Source: a virus
Length of the DNA stretch: 26,337 bases
IMG/VR virus record: IMGVR_UViG_3300030105_002036
Location: 1-26,337 of that record
Direction: 5' to 3' (one strand)
Position 1 is the stretch's first letter, and every line of letters begins with the position of its first letter. The position numbers were made by a program, and so were the translations under genes. Below, one piece after another: positions 4 through 25,151 of the stretch. The notes under the pieces were generated by a model. That model was not told the DNA's origin. It saw only the letters and a list, made by a program, of their open reading frames with translations, and ran no database searches.

Positions 4-264
4 ATGATAGATATTAGCCCAGAAAATTTTCCCATGAAAGACGGTCAAATTGATGGACCCGGAACAGAAACTTCAGACGATATACCAGCCATGCTTTCCG
101 ATGGAGAGTTTGTTATGACATCCAAGGCTGTAAGAGGAGCTGGCTCTTTTGATGTAAACAATAACAACGGCATACTTACACTTACTCCTAACGGAACGCC
201 TACAAGAGACTCAGGCACCAGAGTAATGTATAAGCTTATGGAACACTTTGGGAGCGCAGCATAA
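4..264 (+). CDS. Virion-associated protein, possibly 5'-truncated
   Basis: The first bases of the window are in frame with this gene, so it may begin upstream and the ATG at position 4 may be internal. The visible 86 residues carry GPGTETSDDIPAMLSDGEF near residues 18-36, followed by VMTSKAVRGAG. I know this block from structural-region proteins of marine phages, where it usually sits in the C-terminal half of a small protein. No enzymatic residues are apparent, and the role is probably structural or in virion assembly. The stop overlaps the next start (TAATGG), so translation of the two genes is likely coupled. The family match is by eye and its molecular function is not known to me. Confidence 0.7.
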   Translation: MIDISPENFPMKDGQIDGPGTETSDDIPAMLSDGEFVMTSKAVRGAGSFDVNNNNGILTLTPNGTPTRDSGTRVMYKLMEHFGSAA

Positions 265-1436
265 TGGCAGTAGAGCAGCCTATCGCAACAGATATACAAC
301 AACAGTTTAGAACGCTAGACCCAACCACCAGAGAATTATTCTTTGGCTCAGGCATACCGGGAACTTCAAGCTACTCACCGGGCTTTATGCAACAAGCATT
401 CAGAGCTTCTGAGAAAACATTTTATGACGAGCAAGGCAATCCTGTTGTCGTTCCTGAGCAAGTCGCGGGACTTTCTCCTGAGCAGTTAGCAGCGATTAAC
501 CTATCCAGAGAAAACATTGGCATTCAAGACCCGTACTTATTTGACCAGTTTGATGACCAGAATGCACTTACAAGCATGGGCGCAGAGGGATACTTTGGGC
601 AAGGTCTCGAAAGTTTATTTGGTAGACAAGAGCTTGACCCACAGGGAGTTGCAACAGGTAAAAGGCTTGGCGGTTTAGACGAGTCAGAGCAACTATTAAG
701 AGATTACGCAAACGTAGGGTATGACCCTTCACAAATGGTAGGACCCGCAGACGATCAAAGAAGTTACATTTCAAAATTTTATAACCCATACCAATCAGAG
801 GTGATTGACCAAGTTAAAAAAGACTTTATGAAACAAGGCGCAAAAGGCGACATAGCAGCTACGGCTCAAAACATTGGCAGAGGTGGCGAATCAGCATTTG
901 GCTCAAGAGCCAAGCTTGGTGCAACAGAACGCACTGAGGCTCTTGGCAGAGGCTTAGGGGAGACCTTGGGCAGTCTTAGAAGCCAAGGTTACGATCAGGC
1001 TCAACAAATAGCCTTGGGTGAAGTTGGAAGAAGACAACAAAATCTAGCAAATCTTTCATCGGGCATTGGTAACATTGCTCAAACAAGATCAGCAGGGCAA
1101 GTAGGTCTTGGTGGGCAGCTAATGGGTCTAGGAACTCAAGCCCAACAAGCCACGCAAGCTGACATACAAAGACAGATTGGCTTAGGTCAAATGACTCAAG
1201 GGCAACAACAAAATCAACTCAATGCATCAAGACAGAACGCTCTTATGCAACAACAGGCTCCGATGCAACAAATGCAGTCATTGTTGCCATTTGTGCAAAC
1301 TGTGCCAGCAGGCTTCAGTCAGATTGGTACAACCTATGGTGTTCAGCCATCGGCATTACAAACAGGTCTAGGAGCAGGCTTATCAGCATTGGGTGGAATT
1401 GGAAATTTCATGAACCCACCACAATATAAAATATAA
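264..1436 (+). CDS. Putative internal/ejected virion protein with NPYQ-VID motif
   Basis: This 390-residue protein has the block FYNPYQSEVIDQV around residues 173-185. Downstream come alternating Gln/Ala/Gly helical segments and a GRGGESAFGSR segment. That matches a recurrent podovirus-type virion protein pattern (NPY-x-VID followed by a Gly-Ser-Arg element). The C-terminal third is very Gln- and Met-rich and looks flexible. It begins at the ATG of a TAATGG overlap with the preceding gene, with no Shine-Dalgarno sequence of its own. It also ends in a TAATGA overlap with the next gene. Its place in a run of co-oriented, overlapping late genes supports a structural or internal virion role. The exact function, for example in DNA ejection, is inferred. 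Confidence 0.65.
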   Translation: MAVEQPIATDIQQQFRTLDPTTRELFFGSGIPGTSSYSPGFMQQAFRASEKTFYDEQGNPVVVPEQVAGLSPEQLAAINLSRENIGIQDPYLFDQFDDQNALTSMGAEGYFGQGLESLFGRQELDPQGVATGKRLGGLDESEQLLRDYANVGYDPSQMVGPADDQRSYISKFYNPYQSEVIDQVKKDFMKQGAKGDIAATAQNIGRGGESAFGSRAKLGATERTEALGRGLGETLGSLRSQGYDQAQQIALGEVGRRQQNLANLSSGIGNIAQTRSAGQVGLGGQLMGLGTQAQQATQADIQRQIGLGQMTQGQQQNQLNASRQNALMQQQAPMQQMQSLLPFVQTVPAGFSQIGTTYGVQPSALQTGLGAGLSALGGIGNFMNPPQYKI

Positions 1437-17079: not shown

Positions 17080-17141
17080 TAATGTTAACAGCAGTGGTTG
17101 CGATATTGGTTATCGTGGCTTTTATGTACTCAAATTTATAG
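17070..17141 (+). CDS. 23-residue single-span membrane peptide
   Basis: GGAGGG (17058-17063) sits six bases ahead of the ATG, which is ideal spacing. The peptide reads MEIVMLTAVVAILVIVAFMY then SNL, essentially one transmembrane helix with a short polar end. It overlaps the previous gene by 10 bases. Its stop codon ends inside the AGGAGAA ribosome site of the recombinase, so the three are tightly linked. Such mini-proteins are rarely annotated; a membrane regulator or toxin-like role is possible but not shown. Confidence 0.5.
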   Translation: MEIVMLTAVVAILVIVAFMYSNL

Positions 17142-17151
17142 GAGAATCACA

Positions 17152-17898
17152 ATGAATAACGCACTCGTTTACGAATCCATCTATGGCTATTGCCGGGTAT
17201 CATCCATGGAGCAAGCCAATCACGGTACCTCTCTGGCAGAGCAAAAGAAAACCATCACCAAGATGTGCATGTATCTTTTTGACAAAGAGCCAGACGGTTT
17301 TTACATTGACGATGGCATCTCTGGCACCATCGACTTCGATGACAGACCGCAGGGCAAAGCACTCAAATATATTCTGGAACCCAACGATGTGGTGTTATGC
17401 TCCAAGCTTGACCGGTTGATTAGAAGAATCAGCGTCTTGTGCAAAATCCGCGATGACTTTAACGAGCTGAACATACATTTGTTTGCGCACGATATTCTAG
17501 GCGGAGCTGAGTCAATCAGCACCTCAGCATCACCCAGCGCCAAGATGTTTGTAAACATTATGGCTACCTTTGCCGAATGGGACAGAGACAGCACAGCCGC
17601 TAAGTTACACAGTGGCAAGCTTAGAGTTGCGGAACAAGGCAGGTACATAGGCGGTGGCGTGCCATACGGCTTTCGTTTAGAGCCAAGAGGTCGCCATCAA
17701 TACTTGGTTGAGATACCAGAGCAGCAAGAAATCATCCAGTACGTTGATACTTCGCTTATCAGGCACCACAAAAAAGGCAAGAAAGCACCGTGGCGCATCA
17801 TGTCAAAGCAGATCGGCTCACTCTACAATCAAGCAGTGCCACCTTGGAAGGTCAAAAGAATTGCCGAGAGAAAACTTAAAGAAAGAGCAAGTGTATGA
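17152..17898 (+). CDS. Short serine recombinase (resolvase/invertase family)
   Basis: The start at 17152 has AGGAGAA at 17140-17146. The 248-residue protein begins with YGYCRVSSMEQ, in which Ser17 is the likely nucleophile and Arg15 a catalytic arginine. VVLCSKLDRLIRR (80-92) follows with further active-site arginines, then the long helix FAEWDRDSTAAKLHSGKLR (140-158). VPYGFRLEPRG (170-180) marks the start of a 'Recombinase'-type domain. It is much shorter than large serine integrases (typically over 450 residues) and lacks the zinc-ribbon/coiled-coil C-terminus. It may be a resolvase/invertase or a reduced integrase. Its stop is 12 bp before the first of two identical 43-bp direct repeats. 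Confidence 0.8.
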   Translation: MNNALVYESIYGYCRVSSMEQANHGTSLAEQKKTITKMCMYLFDKEPDGFYIDDGISGTIDFDDRPQGKALKYILEPNDVVLCSKLDRLIRRISVLCKIRDDFNELNIHLFAHDILGGAESISTSASPSAKMFVNIMATFAEWDRDSTAAKLHSGKLRVAEQGRYIGGGVPYGFRLEPRGRHQYLVEIPEQQEIIQYVDTSLIRHHKKGKKAPWRIMSKQIGSLYNQAVPPWKVKRIAERKLKERASV

Positions 17899-17909
17899 TA
17901 TATTTGCTC

Positions 17910-17952
17910 AATGGCAGCGCTAGACGAAATTAACATATTAGATCGACAACCC
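17910..17952 (+). repeat. 43-bp direct repeat, copy 1
   Basis: These 43 bp are identical to 19384-19426, including every synonymous position, and cover the start and first 14 codons of both genes. Beyond the 43 bp the two genes still encode similar residues but differ at many synonymous sites. The repeat starts 12 bp after the serine recombinase gene. Confidence 0.8.
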
Positions 17953-19380
17953 GTTGATCTTGAAATGTTGTTACGCTCTGGCAGACAACCCACGGTTGAG
18001 CCAATACCAATCGAAGAGAGAACGCCAGTCAAAGATTTTTTTTACAACAATGTTCTCAACAGCTCTGGCAGAAAGATGGCTGATATCGCAAGAGCAGAAT
18101 TTAACAATCCTCTAAATTTTTTTCCTGCCACAGCAGTTATTGGCAAAGCCAACAAAGTTAGAACAGGAATTGCATCTTTACCGCCAACGCTTACAAGAAA
18201 TCCAAGCAAAGCCGAGATAAAACAAAACTTTATTAACCAACATCCGCCTGTCGGCTCCATTGATAGCAAAACAGGCAAACCTGTAACCGAACAGCTTATA
18301 AAAAATAGAGCCAATGCTTTTGAAAAGCAATTAAAAGTTCCAGCCGTTAAAAACCGTGAAGAGCTTAGAATGTCCACCACAAAAATATCAGGAGTCGATG
18401 AGCCACTGGAAAGAATTATTAAAACTCCAGAAGATTTGCTGGGAAAAGTTTTGGTGCCAGTTACAGGAGATCGCTCTAGGGTTATTTCTGGCGGAATGGA
18501 TGACATCAGAGGCATTCCATTGATACAAAATATACCAGTACAAGGCGGTCCAAACTACATGATTCAACATGCAGGCAGTGGCAAGGCTTGGGCATCTATG
18601 GAAGGAATTGCAAACAAAAAACAAATGAACATGATATTAGCCGCAGACGAAACTGGATTAGACCCTTATGGCGTCTATTCAGCCATGGGCAGAGAATCAA
18701 TTGATTTCTCCGCACCAGTGGCAACGGCTATGGTGGCTCAACTGCCAGCCTTAAACATTCCAAAAAAACACATTAAAGCCTTTAATGAAACAATAAGAAA
18801 AGGCATCGGCAAGACGCAAAAAGGCAGACCAGATTTTGTTGGCTTAGACAGCGAAGATGTGTTCAACCAATTATTAGGCACAGGTGGCTTTTCACGAGAG
18901 GGTTCGGGAACGCTTAGAACTATTGTGGCTCAAGAAATGAAAAAGCCTCGTTGGGAAAAACTGGGCTTCCCTGTTTACGATGATGTTCTTAAAACAATTA
19001 ATGAACCCTCCCTAATGGACCTGAAAACAGGAGAATCTGGCTTAGGAATATTTAAAGCAAACCCATCCAAGTCTACTTTCCCAGAACTTCAGCACCAAAG
19101 TTATAACACAGCAATACCGGGTGAATACTTTGGCGGTCTAACAGCAAGCGTTCCACCCGAAATAATGTTTCCAAAAGCCTTTTCAGCTATGAGCAAAGAA
19201 ATAAACAGTGGCGGAGTGCCTTTTCCATATTCAAATCAAGTTGGGTCATTAGTTATGAACCCAAAACTTTTTGAAGTAGCCGATGACGAATATGTCGATC
19301 AGCTAATAAAATACATGAACAAAAACAAAGGCACAAACTACGCTAAAGGTGGCATAGCCAGCCTAGCTCATTTAAAATAA
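17911..19380 (+). CDS. Putative virion-delivered effector with shared N-terminal block
   Basis: The 489-residue protein begins with a block of about 90 residues shared with the next gene: MAALDEINILDRQP, EMLLRSGRQPTVEPIP, FFYNNVLN-SGRKM, NNPLNF and IGK-NK-R-GIA. The remaining about 400 residues differ from its neighbours. They contain VLVPVTGDRSR, PVQGGPNYMIQHAGSGKAWAS and a long helical region. The 'QGGP-Y…WAS' segment faintly recalls domains found in phage polyvalent proteins. The C-terminus is YAKGGIASLAHLK. No catalytic motif is recognised. There is no Shine-Dalgarno, and the usual late-gene stop-start overlap is missing. A virion-packaged or ejected protein is inferred from context. Confidence 0.6.
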   Translation: MAALDEINILDRQPVDLEMLLRSGRQPTVEPIPIEERTPVKDFFYNNVLNSSGRKMADIARAEFNNPLNFFPATAVIGKANKVRTGIASLPPTLTRNPSKAEIKQNFINQHPPVGSIDSKTGKPVTEQLIKNRANAFEKQLKVPAVKNREELRMSTTKISGVDEPLERIIKTPEDLLGKVLVPVTGDRSRVISGGMDDIRGIPLIQNIPVQGGPNYMIQHAGSGKAWASMEGIANKKQMNMILAADETGLDPYGVYSAMGRESIDFSAPVATAMVAQLPALNIPKKHIKAFNETIRKGIGKTQKGRPDFVGLDSEDVFNQLLGTGGFSREGSGTLRTIVAQEMKKPRWEKLGFPVYDDVLKTINEPSLMDLKTGESGLGIFKANPSKSTFPELQHQSYNTAIPGEYFGGLTASVPPEIMFPKAFSAMSKEINSGGVPFPYSNQVGSLVMNPKLFEVADDEYVDQLIKYMNKNKGTNYAKGGIASLAHLK

Positions 19381-19383
19381 AAT

Positions 19384-19426
19384 AATGGCAGCGCTAGACG
19401 AAATTAACATATTAGATCGACAACCC
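19384..19426 (+). repeat. 43-bp direct repeat, copy 2
   Basis: Identical to 17910-17952 and in the same orientation, 1474 bp apart. A degenerate third version (ATGGCA…CTAGACGAAA…AACAT) begins at 20617. Recombination between the two copies would remove exactly one gene and keep the reading frame of the fused start. Confidence 0.8.
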
Positions 19427-20617
19427 TTTGACCCAGAGATGTTGTTACGCTCTGGTAGGCAGCCTACAGTTGAACCTATTCCACCAACCTTTAACCCAGC
19501 ATCAGACTTTTTTTACAACAATGTCCTAAATGACTCTGGCAGAAAGATGTTGCAGTTTGCCAAATCAGAAGCAAATAACCCGCTAAACTTTTTGGCTGGT
19601 GCTGGAATGATTGGCAAAGGCAACAAAGCAAGACAGGGCATTGCAGGCATAGGTCATAATCAAGGACCGCCTCTTGACTCTGCTCCACAATATTTAAGCC
19701 CAAAAAGTAAAGCAGAGTTTGATAAGTTTGAATCAAGAGCCTTTGAAAGAAGTCAAAGAGAGGGCAAAGACCTACCAAAATCTTTAACCGATGAAACAAA
19801 AAAAGACCAATTTTTTGCCAGAAAATCAAATGTAGACGATGATGAGTTTGAAGTATTTGCTGAGTGGATAGAGAGTAGCAAAGACCAGTCTATTAAAAAT
19901 AGAGTTGCAGACGTAATAAAGGCAAACAAAGAAAGAAGCTTTGGGTTTAGAGGAATTGAGGGTGGCTTTGGCAGAATAGATGATATATCGAGAAAACATC
20001 TTTTCCAAAACAATCTTGTTGATGCAGACGGAAATGTAACTCTGTATCGAGCAATAAATCTCGGAGAAAACAAAAGCTTAGTGCCTGACACAGGATTGGT
20101 CAGCACAACCATAGACCCTAAATATGTAGCCAATCTTGCCAAACAAGAATCTGAAAAAGTTAGCTATGTCATACCAGCAAACATGAAAGACAAAGTTGAT
20201 ATTTTTGACACACCTCTGGACTTAGCAATGAAAGGCATTGAAAGAGAAAGGCAGGTCATGACAAGAACACCTATGATTGTTCAGTACAAAGTTCCTGTTG
20301 ACAAAGTTGAAGCTTATTTGCCCGCTATTTTAAACAAAATGGATGATTCGGAGCTAAATTCGGTTGTAAGCAGAAGAGCTTATAGAGATCATGGTGACGA
20401 AATTGCAGAAAGACAGGATGCTCATAGAGCAGAAGGTTATGATGATGTTTATGGCATAGACGATGAAGTGGCACACGAATACGGCATCAAAGACGAAATA
20501 TACGACACTTTGTATAACGCAGATTTAGAGTCTGAGGTTATACTTGACGCTACCGATCTCAGTCCTTCAAAAGTTTTTAGTTTGGAAGATTTTACAAAAC
20601 AGATTAATATTAAATAA
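19385..20617 (+). CDS. Putative virion ADP-ribosyltransferase with shared N-terminal block
   Basis: Residues 1-90 match the preceding protein (MAALDEINILDRQP, EMLLRSGRQPTVEPIP, FFYNNVLN, NNPLNF). A GIGHNQGPPLD linker follows at about 89-99. Residues about 215-305 show the three signature sites of R-S-E ADP-ribosyltransferases: VTLYRAIN (Arg222), GLVSTTIDPKYV (Ser240-Thr-Thr) and GIERERQVM (Glu286-x-Glu288). Such enzymes move ADP-ribose from NAD to target proteins. T4 Alt is a known virion-packaged example. The C-terminal 100 residues are acidic and unassigned. The Arg-to-Ser spacing of 18 is short but plausible. Position among late genes and the shared N-terminus suggest packaging and injection, which is inferred. 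Confidence 0.65.
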   Translation: MAALDEINILDRQPFDPEMLLRSGRQPTVEPIPPTFNPASDFFYNNVLNDSGRKMLQFAKSEANNPLNFLAGAGMIGKGNKARQGIAGIGHNQGPPLDSAPQYLSPKSKAEFDKFESRAFERSQREGKDLPKSLTDETKKDQFFARKSNVDDDEFEVFAEWIESSKDQSIKNRVADVIKANKERSFGFRGIEGGFGRIDDISRKHLFQNNLVDADGNVTLYRAINLGENKSLVPDTGLVSTTIDPKYVANLAKQESEKVSYVIPANMKDKVDIFDTPLDLAMKGIERERQVMTRTPMIVQYKVPVDKVEAYLPAILNKMDDSELNSVVSRRAYRDHGDEIAERQDAHRAEGYDDVYGIDDEVAHEYGIKDEIYDTLYNADLESEVILDATDLSPSKVFSLEDFTKQINIK

Positions 20618-23600
20618 TGGCAACACTAGACGAAACAAACATCTTTGGAATACCACCAAAACAACCTGAAAAGAAAGATGACAGTCTTTCTCGCCTAGGC
20701 ATATCTGAAAGTGGCTATCTTAATCGACTGGCTCAGATACAGCAGATGAACCTGCAAGGACAAACCGACATGTCCGAAGCACGCTCTGCCAGAGGTGCTG
20801 AAAAAAAAGTTTTAAGAGATCAGTATTTCTCTGACTTAGCCGAAGCCGCCAAAGACCCAACCCAAGAAAAAAGAGACACAGCTTTAGAAAGTTTTTTTGA
20901 AACACCTTTTATGTTTCAGATGGGTCAATACATTCCCGACCCGACTGGCTTGCCAACCGACATAGCTGAGGCAGAATACGCTGGCAGAAAATTTAGAGAG
21001 TCCAGAGAAGAAAGGGGTTTAGGCGATGCTAATTTTCTTTACCCAGATCACATGTCACCCGGCGTTTCATTTGACGGTGGTCAAAGAATTATGTATGAAG
21101 ACCTTTCTGCCGAAGAAGCTGCCTTACAATTACAACGAGGTCTAGCCATTGCCAGCATTCCACCCGGAGTCGGTGGCATAGCATCCCTAGCATCAATACC
21201 AATTGTAGCAGCACGAAGTGCATTTAAAACGCCAAAGTTAGGGCTAGATATAAGCGAGGCACCAAGAATAGACTACAACGACAGATCGTTTCAAGCACCG
21301 ACAATACAAGCCAAAACCATGGATGGACAAGGCGGTGGTGGTGGTGGAATTGGTGGGTTATCCAAGCAAGAATTTACACAACAAGAGATAGACACCAAAG
21401 CCAGAGACGGCATGTTTATCTCACCTTTAAACAAATACCTAATTACCACAGCACCTAAAAATTTAAAAGGTCAGGCTATCCTTGATAACATTAAATCCAA
21501 CCAATCAAAAGGTGGCTATAAAACCGATGAAATAAAAATCACAGGCATTGAAAATTTCTTGAAAGAAAACCCAGAAGCCACAACAGCCGATGCCATAGAC
21601 TTTATATCTGAAAATAAAGTTCGAGTTCAACAAAATGTTTACAAAGACAATGTTAACTCTTCTGAGCCAGAACTATTCCAAGAGCCAGAGCTTGAGTCAA
21701 TAAATCCAATTACAGGAAAAGATGACTCACTTGAATTTGCAGAAGGTTATTACAAAGGAATGAAAGATGGTGACGAAGACTACAGAATAGGTACTGGAGC
21801 GGTTAGGTCACATTTCATGGACCTTCATGCCGATGGAAAAATTAACGATTCTGAGCTAGATAATGTTAAAGATAAGATTACCGCTTCTGAGGTCAGATAT
21901 AGCGGGATAGACAATCCCGAACTTCCAAACCAATATTTATCAGACGATGAGCTTCAACTTCTTAGCAAAAATTTGTCCATAACAGAATACGGGTCCTTAG
22001 CGCCAAACAAGATAATTAGAATAAATGATGATGTGGGACACCCATCGCTGGGTATTTATGGCAATGACGTTGATGGCTATAAATTTTTTCAAAACAATAG
22101 CCTTATTGATACGCCTAGAATTCAAACTGAGGGCGAAGCAAGAATACAAATGCGACAATTTATGCTTGATAACAGCATGATTGAAGGAGACTTATTTCAA
22201 CCCATTGCAGGTTCCGCTCAGTTTAAAAATAATTATGTTTTATCTAAAAATCAGACATTACAATTTCCGGGCGGAGAAAACTACGAAGAAATCGCTCTGG
22301 TTATGCACCCTGAAATGAATTTTAAAGAAATGTCTCCAGTGGGCAGAGGTCACTACCCAAAAGAAAAAAACCTAATAGGTAACATGATTAAGATAGATGC
22401 AAAGCTTGCAGACGGCAGCGACACCTACCATGTTCTTGAGTTTCAATCTGACCCGCAGCAACAAGGAAGAAAAGTAGGATTTGACAACGAAAAAAGTAGA
22501 AAAATTTTACAGGGTGAATATTCTAAAGCAGAAAAAGACCTTGAACAATATTACAAAGATGTGTTTGATTTAAGTGACGATGAGTTCAACAATTTAAACT
22601 TTGATTCTCCTGAAACCTACTCCCGTCAAATGATTGAAAACATACGAAAACGTCTCGACCCTACTGGTGTAGCAAGATTTGACCCTCCAAGAATAAGGGA
22701 ATTTGAAAATGCAAGAATGGCTGCGACAACAGATGACCTTGTCACCGAGTACCCTTTTGGAGAAAATTATCATGAGCTTGTTATAAAAAATGCTATCGTT
22801 AATGCCGTAAGAGACGGCAAGTCATCGGTGTCTTTTCCCAGTGCCGCCACCATCCTAGACCGCACAGGAACAAAACCAGCTTATATAGAGAATTTAGAAG
22901 TTACAAGAGTAGCCAAACCAACAAAAGTAGACAGGGAAATTTTCGACATAAAAAACATAGGGCGAGAAAACGATTTTAGATCAGAAGAAATACTTAAACA
23001 CGCAAGACAATTAAGAAAAGAGAAAAGGCTAAGTGATGCTGGCAGAGAGGATTACTCAACAGGCATAGATTTACACGAATATACAGATTCGTCAGAAAGA
23101 ATGATTGTTGATGCAGAAGCTTTTGAATTAGAAAGAGAAATGAACAGGCTTGGCTTTGAGTTGGTAGACGATGAAGATGTGGTTCTTAGCCCAAAACTAA
23201 ACGCTCATTATGATCGAGATGATTACGGAACGTCTGCGTATGAAGCCTCAAGAAGCGAGGCAATTAAAGACACGCAACCCTTAACGCTCAAAGCCATTGA
23301 AAAAGGCATACCTTTTAGTGACTTTGAGGGAGGGCTACTTTACAACAAAAGCACAGATGAGTTTACAACAATAAAAAATCTTTTTAACGATGCCGAAAGA
23401 AAAATGGTTGACCAAGGCAACTGGGTTATCAAAAGCACAGAAAAAGTAAAAAAAGGTAAAAAAACTATTGAAAGACCCCGAATAAGAGAATTTATGAGCA
23501 TTGACCACGTTCAAATTGAATACGGCAGTAGCGTAGCAAACGCAGTTAAAAAAGCCACAGAATCAGGTGATATTAAACAAACTTGGAACAGTGACTTCTT

Positions 23601-24021
23601 TGGCTTGGTTGAAGGGCATTCAAGACCATCAAGTGACAATGTCATTGATATTTATAAAAAAACAGATTTTCACAACATAGAGTTTGGCAGAGAAGTTGGG
23701 GGTGAAAGCTTTAAAACAGATTACGATAAAAAAGTTCCAAAATATTTACAAAAATTACAAAATGAATACGGTGGCAAATATGAGCTAACAGAACTCGATG
23801 CCAAAACTGCTGCTGGCAAGCCAACCGATGGGGTTACAGGAAAAAAACGTGATTACACTGACTTAGAAAAAAAAGTTTTAAAAACTCATGTTCTCCGCAT
23901 CACCCCAGAGATGAGAGACAAAGTAATAAAAGAGGGAATGGCATCTATGTACAAAGGTGGTATAGTAAATAAGGTAAAATCCATGGATAAACCAATCCAA
24001 GGCAACAGACGAGAAATGTAA
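20617..24021 (+). CDS. Large polyvalent-type protein (1134 aa)
   Basis: The gene starts at a TAATGG overlap. The N-terminus (MATLDETNIFGIPP) is a weak relative of the two upstream proteins. A hydrophobic Gly/Ala/Ile segment (GVGGIASLASIPIVAA) lies near residue 190. From about residue 553 it follows a domain typical of phage polyvalent proteins: GGENYEEIALVM, GHYPKEKNLIGNMIKI and YHVLEFQSDPQQQGRKVGF (about 606-624). NYHELVIKNAIVNAV (about 717-731) and LRITPEMRDKVI (about 1093-1104) continue the pattern. This order matches the 'ENYRE…EEIQSDWHQ-GRK…WHELALKR…ITPEM' family associated with injected multi-domain proteins. No enzyme active site is clear. The C-terminus carries MYKGGIV. Confidence 0.65.
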   Translation: MATLDETNIFGIPPKQPEKKDDSLSRLGISESGYLNRLAQIQQMNLQGQTDMSEARSARGAEKKVLRDQYFSDLAEAAKDPTQEKRDTALESFFETPFMFQMGQYIPDPTGLPTDIAEAEYAGRKFRESREERGLGDANFLYPDHMSPGVSFDGGQRIMYEDLSAEEAALQLQRGLAIASIPPGVGGIASLASIPIVAARSAFKTPKLGLDISEAPRIDYNDRSFQAPTIQAKTMDGQGGGGGGIGGLSKQEFTQQEIDTKARDGMFISPLNKYLITTAPKNLKGQAILDNIKSNQSKGGYKTDEIKITGIENFLKENPEATTADAIDFISENKVRVQQNVYKDNVNSSEPELFQEPELESINPITGKDDSLEFAEGYYKGMKDGDEDYRIGTGAVRSHFMDLHADGKINDSELDNVKDKITASEVRYSGIDNPELPNQYLSDDELQLLSKNLSITEYGSLAPNKIIRINDDVGHPSLGIYGNDVDGYKFFQNNSLIDTPRIQTEGEARIQMRQFMLDNSMIEGDLFQPIAGSAQFKNNYVLSKNQTLQFPGGENYEEIALVMHPEMNFKEMSPVGRGHYPKEKNLIGNMIKIDAKLADGSDTYHVLEFQSDPQQQGRKVGFDNEKSRKILQGEYSKAEKDLEQYYKDVFDLSDDEFNNLNFDSPETYSRQMIENIRKRLDPTGVARFDPPRIREFENARMAATTDDLVTEYPFGENYHELVIKNAIVNAVRDGKSSVSFPSAATILDRTGTKPAYIENLEVTRVAKPTKVDREIFDIKNIGRENDFRSEEILKHARQLRKEKRLSDAGREDYSTGIDLHEYTDSSERMIVDAEAFELEREMNRLGFELVDDEDVVLSPKLNAHYDRDDYGTSAYEASRSEAIKDTQPLTLKAIEKGIPFSDFEGGLLYNKSTDEFTTIKNLFNDAERKMVDQGNWVIKSTEKVKKGKKTIERPRIREFMSIDHVQIEYGSSVANAVKKATESGDIKQTWNSDFFGLVEGHSRPSSDNVIDIYKKTDFHNIEFGREVGGESFKTDYDKKVPKYLQKLQNEYGGKYELTELDAKTAAGKPTDGVTGKKRDYTDLEKKVLKTHVLRITPEMRDKVIKEGMASMYKGGIVNKVKSMDKPIQGNRREM

Positions 24022-25151
24022 TGGCAGTAGATTATTTAAAAGACTATTTAAACATTGACCCGAATGATTATTCTTCAATGGAATCTCGCATTCGCGGTGA
24101 CGAGCCACCAGCACAATCTCCACTCATGATGAGACAACCCATGATGATGCCACAAACCAGAAGTTTGGGCGACATTTCAGCCATGCCGATGATGCCAAGA
24201 CGGCAACCCGAGCAACAAGATGATAGTAAGTACCAAGGCTTGATGGATGAAATTGCAACACTAAGATCACAAATTGAAGGCATGCAAGCTCCGACAGAGC
24301 AAGTTGCCACAGATCAAGCACCAGTTATGGCGGATGCACCAACTGAAGTAAACATGGATGATGCCCGTAAAATGTTTTATGAATCTCCTGAGTTCAAAGA
24401 GTACCAAAGACAGACAGAAGGCATGGCTCATACCATGGAGTACAATCCAAGCAATTACACAGACCCAACGACAGGAAGCACGGTCAGCTTTCAAGATAGA
24501 TCAGGATTGTTTCAGGATTGGTATAAAAACACTTACGGCAGAGATTTAGCGGTAGGTACTAACAACAACAGGTCTTTTCGAATTGGCGACATAGGAGGCT
24601 ATGGTGTTCTTGACGAATCAAAAGCAATTCAAGCACCCGTTGGCATAGAAAACAGAGCGGTAGGCGAACCAGAACCTTTTGAAGACAAAAATGTTTTTGA
24701 GTTGAGACAAGAAACAGAGTCAATGGTCAACCCTTACAATGAATTGCCTACAACAGTACCAATGCCACAAGCACCATCTCAAGACATTCAAGCCAGCATT
24801 GATATGCTTGCAAACTTACCAAAAATGAACATACCGCAGATTCCAGACATGGAAGAAATTAAGCGAAAAATGGCTGAAGCTAACATGAGCTTTCCTGAGC
24901 CAGTAAGTTATCAAGATCAGTTGCAATCAATCAGAGATTTACCACAATCTAACTTACCCAACAATTTTATGGGCAACTCAGCCAGAAACGTCATGAGTCA
25001 AATCATGCAACCACAAATGCAATCTTTTGGCTCCCCAAGACAAGCCATTGGAGAACTTAATATCGACCAAGGCTACCGACCACAAATGATGGCAGGCGGC
25101 GGTTCGTTAGACATGGCTTTACAAAATTTAAAATCCAAGCTGAATGGCTAA
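24021..25151 (+). CDS. Met/Pro/Gln-rich putative virion protein (376 aa)
   Basis: The gene starts in a TAATGG overlap with the preceding gene. The N-terminal 100 residues are unusually rich in Met, Pro and Gln (PPAQSPLMMRQPMMMPQ, AMPMMPRRQPEQQ) and are probably disordered. A short coiled coil (DEIATLRSQIEGMQ) follows. The middle (NPSNYTDPTTGS to GGYGVLDES, about 138-195) looks folded, with many aromatic residues. The C-terminus ends MMAGGGSLDMALQNLKSKL. No family is recognised. Its late-operon context points to a virion or assembly protein. It overlaps the next gene by 8 bases. Confidence 0.55.
   Translation: MAVDYLKDYLNIDPNDYSSMESRIRGDEPPAQSPLMMRQPMMMPQTRSLGDISAMPMMPRRQPEQQDDSKYQGLMDEIATLRSQIEGMQAPTEQVATDQAPVMADAPTEVNMDDARKMFYESPEFKEYQRQTEGMAHTMEYNPSNYTDPTTGSTVSFQDRSGLFQDWYKNTYGRDLAVGTNNNRSFRIGDIGGYGVLDESKAIQAPVGIENRAVGEPEPFEDKNVFELRQETESMVNPYNELPTTVPMPQAPSQDIQASIDMLANLPKMNIPQIPDMEEIKRKMAEANMSFPEPVSYQDQLQSIRDLPQSNLPNNFMGNSARNVMSQIMQPQMQSFGSPRQAIGELNIDQGYRPQMMAGGGSLDMALQNLKSKLNG

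What the first reader, a model, noticed from the sequence alone, without database searches (positions are those of the whole stretch)
20020..20310. Candidate virion-packaged ADP-ribosyltransferase
The 19385 protein has VTLYRAIN (Arg222), GLVSTTIDPKYV (Ser240-Thr-Thr) and IERERQV (Glu286-x-Glu288), in the order of R-S-E ADP-ribosyltransferases. T4 Alt is a known injected enzyme of this kind. Here the enzyme-like part sits behind the shared N-terminal block in a late gene cluster, suggesting delivery with phage DNA to modify host proteins.
Basis: partly seen in the sequence, partly recalled or inferred. Interest (0 to 1): 0.75.

Follow-up and report, generated by a model that had tools for sequence, protein, structure and literature searches.

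The report
Tagged phage cargo protein, possible ADP-ribosyltransferase
A gene in an uncultured, probably marine phage makes a protein with a weak but above-background resemblance to enzymes that tag host proteins with ADP-ribose, and it sits in a slot where related phages carry different payloads behind the same short leading tag; enzyme activity and delivery with the DNA remain unproven.

Summary
The motifs are present where stated: Arg222, Ser240-Thr-Thr and Glu286-x-Glu288 in the 410-aa product of 19385-20617. The first half of the ADP-ribosyltransferase (ART) reading gets weak support. An independent phage-ART profile aligns residues 215-268, above all 100 column shuffles, and the protein and its two homologues rank 1-3 of 174 background ORFs. 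However, Pfam, NCBIfam and PDB sequence searches are silent, and AlphaFold models are too poor to test the fold (pLDDT 34 and 44). The proposed catalytic Glu286/288 is doubtful: no hydrophobic strand follows it and the models make it helical. A classic E-x-E-V-I-L lies at Glu382-384 but needs a ~95-residue insertion. The catalytic glutamate is unresolved. Virion packaging is inferred, but the context is more interesting than reported. The gene follows a serine recombinase and starts with a tag (MA[AST]LDE[IT]NI[LF]) shared by three adjacent genes. In relatives the same slot carries the same tag on different bodies: ART-like, P0002-type, an HEXXH protein, and a cut, unidentified one. This looks like a swappable-cargo locus, analogous to T4's capsid-targeted internal proteins. 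Best reading: divergent ART-like cargo protein, plausibly ejected into the host.

The parts
19385..20617 (+). P0001, 410 aa: N-terminal tag and block, linker, ART-like body
   Evidence: ORF; homologues in L001 and L002; dN/dS 0.06-0.09 within residues 199-410
19385..19414 (+). N-terminal tag MAALDEINIL, shared with the 17911 and 20617 genes and with slot genes of relatives
19385..19651 (+). N block, residues 1-89, duplicated from or with the 17911 gene (71% aa; the first 42-43 nt from the start codon identical)
19649..19675 (+). IGHNQGPPL linker motif at the boundary between N block and body
20027..20614 (+). ART-like body, residues 215-410
   Evidence: residues 215-268 align to a phage ART profile
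20048..20050 (+). Arg222 codon (candidate beta-1 Arg)
20102..20110 (+). Ser240-Thr241-Thr242 codons (candidate beta-2 S-T-T)
20240..20248 (+).
20528..20536 (+). Glu382-Ser-Glu384 codons, alternative E-x-E followed by V-I-L
17098..17898 (+). Serine recombinase directly upstream of the variable slot; the likely start is the ATG at 17152
   Evidence: Pfam Resolvase 3e-22, PHROG integrase/invertase
17911..19380 (+). P0002, 489 aa: same tag and N block, different body, C-term KGGIASLAHLK
20617..24021 (+). P0003, 1134 aa: tag MATLDETNIF; conserved ends and divergent middle versus L002
24021..25151 (+). P0007, 376 aa, low-complexity late protein
264..1436 (+). DNA-ejection-protein-like gene at the other end of the contig
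   Evidence: phrog_4287, 5e-13

Best explanation
P0001 is a cargo protein of a late phage operon. Its short N-terminal tag and N block probably direct it into the particle, and its C-terminal ~200 residues are a divergent ART-like domain of the R-S-E type that would act on host macromolecules using NAD after ejection with the DNA. Shown: the motifs, weak similarity over the R..STT half, purifying selection, the shared tag and the exchange of bodies in the same slot in relatives. Inferred: the fold, the catalytic glutamate (E384 slightly preferred over E288), the activity, packaging and target.
For: Profile-profile alignment of residues 215-248 to nine phage ARTs that were not chosen by this motif scores 26.3, with 0 of 100 column shuffles reaching it. 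Single-sequence P0001 aligns over 215-268 and ranks first of 174 ORFs, its homologues second and third. With all 11 ARTs the score is 35.9, but L013 and L014 were found through the motif. The second, colinear, non-significant hit puts E382-S-E-V-I-L-D on the ART catalytic strand. dN/dS is 0.06-0.09 in the body. The tag is shared by three adjacent genes and by slot genes with other bodies. T-even internal proteins are diverse defence proteins sharing only a capsid targeting sequence (PMC3012670). About 44% of phage ARTs lie in contexts suggesting head packaging (PMC9503650).
Against: No Pfam, NCBIfam or PDB hit to any ART, even at E up to 1-10. hhalign probability is only 12% without the motif-selected rows. 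One other ORF (L001 P0003 type) scores 24.9, close behind. R222-S240 spacing (18) is shorter than in L013 and L014 (about 26). No single E-x-E satisfies both spacing and strand pattern. AlphaFold gives no ART fold. No virion proteomics exists.
Confidence: 0.4

Rival explanations
1. It is an internal or ejected phage protein with an unrelated, non-ART body; the R..STT..ExE series is coincidence.
For: No family or structure library recognises it. The motif series has a by-chance rate of 0.0015 per protein before allowing for many ORFs and families. Similar G-[LF]-V-T-T-T-x-D-P stretches occur in many bacterial proteins that are not ARTs.
Against: It ranks first of 174 background ORFs and beats all column shuffles against an independent ART profile, and the alignment continues to the IPANMK strand.
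Confidence: 0.4
2. It is an ART-fold protein that has lost catalysis (E288-x-Q290 in place of E-x-E) and works by binding, not modifying.
For: MAFFT puts E288-x-Q290 on the E-x-E columns when residues 140-330 are used; Q290 is invariant in all three homologues.
Against: E382-S-E-V-I-L offers an intact E-x-E, and E288 is one residue away from a spacing-based fit.
Confidence: 0.1
3. It is an ART-like protein made during infection and not packaged; the shared N-terminus is only a recombination junction left by duplication.
For: The first ~43 nt of the 17911 and 19385 genes are identical and the junction DNA between genes is conserved across contigs, which fits cassette exchange by homologous ends.
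Against: In L145 the tag is kept as protein with synonymous codon changes (MASLDEINIL), and N-block dN/dS is 0.16-0.33, so the protein sequence is under selection.
Confidence: 0.1

Closest known systems
Phage T4 Alt and the Alt/VIP2 (R-S-E) ART clade
   Same: Order of R, S-T-[ST] and E-x-E motifs; late gene; in T4, packaged and injected, with diverse internal proteins sharing an N-terminal capsid targeting sequence (PMC5512222, PMC3012670).
   Different: No detectable relation by Pfam; shorter (410 aa); catalytic glutamate unclear; the phage appears P22-like, not T4-like.
MuF-associated and other phage ADPrib_exo_Tox (PF03496) ARTs, such as L013, L014 and Gordonia/Streptomyces phage genes
   Same: R..STT..IPAxxK stretch alignable.
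   Different: P0001 misses PF03496 entirely, whereas L013 and L014 score 1e-21 and 2e-18; no RG..F+V strand after E-x-E.
ARTs of polyvalent proteins (Iyer et al. 2017)
   Same: Predicted early-delivered effectors in phages; metallopeptidase is another common domain there, and an HEXXH protein occupies the same slot in L144.
   Different: Those ARTs are H-Y-D and fused in large polypeptides (PMC5512222); here the motif is R-S-E and the bodies are separate tagged genes.
T-even internal proteins with a capsid targeting sequence
   Same: Diverse bodies behind one conserved short N-terminus (PMC3012670).
   Different: The tag is not known to be related; no prohead protease or targeting role shown here.

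Membership tests
R-S-E ADP-ribosyltransferases | Arg on beta-1 in an aromatic-Arg context | tested here: met
   LYRA with R222, aligned to the Arg of phage ARTs; sequence level only
R-S-E ADP-ribosyltransferases | S-T-[ST] on beta-2 | tested here: met
   S240-T-T aligned to the same motif; sequence level only
R-S-E ADP-ribosyltransferases | E-x-E at the start of a hydrophobic beta-5 | tested here: inconclusive
   E286xE288 has the spacing without the strand; E382xE384-VIL has the strand at an unusual spacing
R-S-E ADP-ribosyltransferases | Match to a curated ART profile | tested here: not met
   No PF03496 or PF01129 match at E up to 10; no NCBIfam match
R-S-E ADP-ribosyltransferases | Split beta-sheet ART fold | tested here: inconclusive
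   AlphaFold pLDDT 34 and 44, Foldseek nothing below E 0.8
R-S-E ADP-ribosyltransferases | NAD-dependent activity | not testable with these tools
   needs biochemistry
T4 Alt-like virion-packaged ART | Present in the mature head and injected | not testable with these tools
   no virion proteomics for this uncultured phage
T4 Alt-like virion-packaged ART | N-terminal targeting sequence shared with other internal proteins | tested here: inconclusive
   A shared tag is present on three adjacent genes; its role is unknown
Polyvalent-protein ART (Tox-ART-HYD2) | H, Y, D active-site series | tested here: not met
   Motifs are R-S-E type against H-Y-D described in PMC5512222

The most novel reading that the evidence does not exclude
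The locus after the serine recombinase is an effector cassette of a podovirus-like phage group. Exchangeable host-acting proteins (ART-like, HEXXH peptidase-like, others) are each made as separate genes carrying one short N-terminal capsid-targeting tag, so the phage keeps the delivery signal and swaps the payload: a split form of the polyvalent-protein strategy, analogous to the T4 internal proteins.
Probability: 0.3. Interest if true: 0.72.

Novelty: new variant of a known kind. Interest (0 to 1): 0.45.

Why it matters
Packaged ARTs are a known first-strike tool of phages, but in the NAD/ADP-ribose survey only about 3% of podoviruses had an ART (PMC9503650). If P0001 is one, it adds a family that current profiles miss. 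The more general point is the slot: a ten-residue tag kept at protein level while the bodies change predicts a transferable packaging signal outside the T4 group, which can be tested by fusing the tag to a reporter. It also gives a search key (tag plus recombinase) for unrecognised host-acting phage proteins in viral metagenomes.

Tried and rejected
Pfam, NCBIfam, PHROGs and PDB sequence searches gave nothing useful; phrog_23688 (E 0.006-0.15, unknown function) could not be followed. PADLOC gave weak unrelated hits. AlphaFold with three close homologues was too weak for both full length and residues 199-410, and Foldseek on it was meaningless. Searches for further homologues by ART motifs and by the VPVDKVEAY stretch returned only the known loci or ordinary ARTs. 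The GLVSTTxDP pattern in bacterial genomes returned mainly G-[FL]-V-T-T-T proteins that look like pseudouridine synthases (from memory), and no evident ART. A 16-position score of the catalytic strand did not discriminate between the E-x-E candidates. tblastn in 50,697 phage records found no relative of P0001 or P0003. A PARP14 hit to the L144 HEXXH protein (E 0.08) was judged chance.

Full report
Observation. The window is a 26,337-base virus record from IMG/VR. ORF 19385-20617 encodes 410 aa (P0001). A third contig, L005, holds only the N-terminus. A residue series R..ST[S/T]..ExE with ART-like spacing arises in 0.15% of shuffles of this protein, before correction for the many ORFs and families a reader implicitly scans.

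Is it an ART? Curated models say nothing: no Pfam or NCBIfam match and no PDB match to an ART. As a yardstick I assembled 11 phage ARTs. Two of them, L013 and L014, were found through the STT pattern and match PF03496 strongly; nine came from annotated phage records found with L013. Against the nine alone, a profile of P0001 and its homologues aligns over R222..STT (residues 215-248) with score 26.3 and probability 12%; none of 100 column-shuffled versions reached it. Against all 11 the score is 35.9 and probability 66%, but that includes motif-selected rows. Run as single sequences against the nine-ART profile, P0001 and its two homologues are the top three of 174 ORFs from this and related loci; the fourth, a stretch of the L001 P0003-type protein, is not far behind. 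For P0001 the alignment runs through residue 268 (IPANMK against the ART IPAGTK-like strand). This is suggestive remote similarity, not proof.

The glutamate. The protein has four E-x-E pairs: 154, 255, 286 and 382. By spacing from STT (46 and 48 residues, against 49 and 51 in L013, counted on the sequences), E286/E288 fit. But in all 11 ARTs the catalytic Glu is followed by three hydrophobic residues and then usually a basic/glycine turn; E288 is followed by R-Q-V-M-T-R. MAFFT places E288-x-Q290 on the E-x-E columns when residues 140-330 are used, and other residues with other truncations. Both low-confidence AlphaFold models make residues 277-288 a helix. E382-S-E384-V-I-L matches the catalytic strand in sequence and appears as the second, non-significant, colinear profile hit (E 0.31). 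It would need a ~95-residue insertion; a T4-type Alt (L021) also carries a longer stretch between STS and E-x-E. I prefer E384 slightly and regard the assignment as open. Selection does not decide: against the window sequence, residues 212-320 have dN/dS ~0.06 and 381-410 ~0.13-0.15.

Structure. AlphaFold on three sequences gave pLDDT 34 (full length) and 44, pTM 0.37 (residues 199-410). Foldseek searches of the second model returned nothing below E 0.8.

Surroundings. Upstream is a serine recombinase (17098-17898). Then come P0002 (17911), P0001 (19385), P0003 (20617), P0007 (24021) and a repeat-rich gene (25144), all on the + strand and touching or overlapping. In L002 the same series is followed by a gene matching tail-fibre families. 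At the left end of the contig lie three large genes; the first matches a DNA-ejection family (phrog_4287). A remote homologue of P0002 in an environmental phage record (MW202879) follows a run of large hypothetical genes downstream of a stabilisation protein, and a homologue of the third large window gene lies in a late region with P22-like coat and tail genes (MW202691). This fits a P22-like layout, and P22 ejects internal proteins with its DNA (established knowledge; abstract of PMC8402733).

The tag and the slot. The three adjacent genes begin MAALDEINIL, MAALDEINIL and MATLDETNIF. P0001 and P0002 share an 89-residue N block (71% aa, first ~43 nt identical). A scan of IMG/VR for the tag found further cases. 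Directly after the recombinase, L001 and L005 carry the P0001 type (the window has it after P0002), L024/L143 the P0002 type, L144 a 265-aa protein with HEYAH (HEXXH, metallopeptidase-like by motif only), and L145 the N block, IGHNRGPKL and an unidentified body cut by the contig end. The L144 protein and P0002 also share the C-terminus GGIASLAHLK, and the DNA around the next start codon is the same in both, so bodies appear to be exchanged between conserved ends. P0003 and its L002 homologue likewise keep N- and C-termini but are only about 24% identical in the best middle stretch. The tag is not merely a DNA junction: in L145 it is kept through synonymous changes. A few other hits of the tag pattern (L146-L149) are in short or unrelated ORFs and may be chance.

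Mechanism. Most likely P0001 is loaded into the particle through its N-terminus, ejected with the DNA and acts on host molecules through an ART-like body. Shown: gene, motifs, weak ART resemblance, selection, shared tag, swapped bodies. Inferred: fold, catalysis, packaging, target. T-even internal proteins, diverse in function and sharing only a capsid targeting sequence (PMC3012670), are the closest working analogy. Polyvalent-protein ARTs are H-Y-D (PMC5512222), so P0001 is not a member of that ART family.

Verdict. Observation confirmed; interpretation partly supported. The enzyme claim is plausible but unproven, and its catalytic residue should not be taken as Glu288. The swappable tagged slot is the part most worth following.

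Noticed in passing
window 19649-19675; L145 near 6640; IMG/VR loci L124-L142: The nine-residue motif IGHNQGPPL marks the boundary between N block and body. The same motif appears in linkers or near N-termini of unrelated phage proteins (nuclease-like, internal virion-like, exonuclease-like) in 21 IMG/VR stretches; no paper in the library holds the searched strings.
   Followed up: partly
window 17910-18174 and 19384-19645: The 5' ends of two neighbouring genes are a direct repeat (87% over the first 100 nt, 73% over the next part) next to a serine recombinase, suggesting duplication or exchange of gene bodies.
   Followed up: partly
L144 242-1036 (-): In the same slot of a relative, a tagged 265-aa protein with HEYAH (HEXXH) and the C-terminus GGIASLAHLK identical to that of P0002; no family match.
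   Followed up: partly
window C-termini at ~19345-19380, ~23940-24018, ~25110-25148: Several late proteins end in a short GG-containing element (YAKGGI.., MYKGGI.., MAGGG..), possibly a second shared signal.
   Followed up: no
window 20617-24021: P0003 (1134 aa) and its L002 homologue both hold a stretch like E[FI]QSD in an otherwise divergent middle; no family match.
   Followed up: no
L144 3615-4538 (-), L145 2307-3233 (+), L001 4740-5708 (+): Relatives carry a ~310-aa gene with HELTHW/HELSHW before the recombinase; it resembles ArdC-like antirestriction proteins by eye and was not seen among the window ORFs.
   Followed up: no
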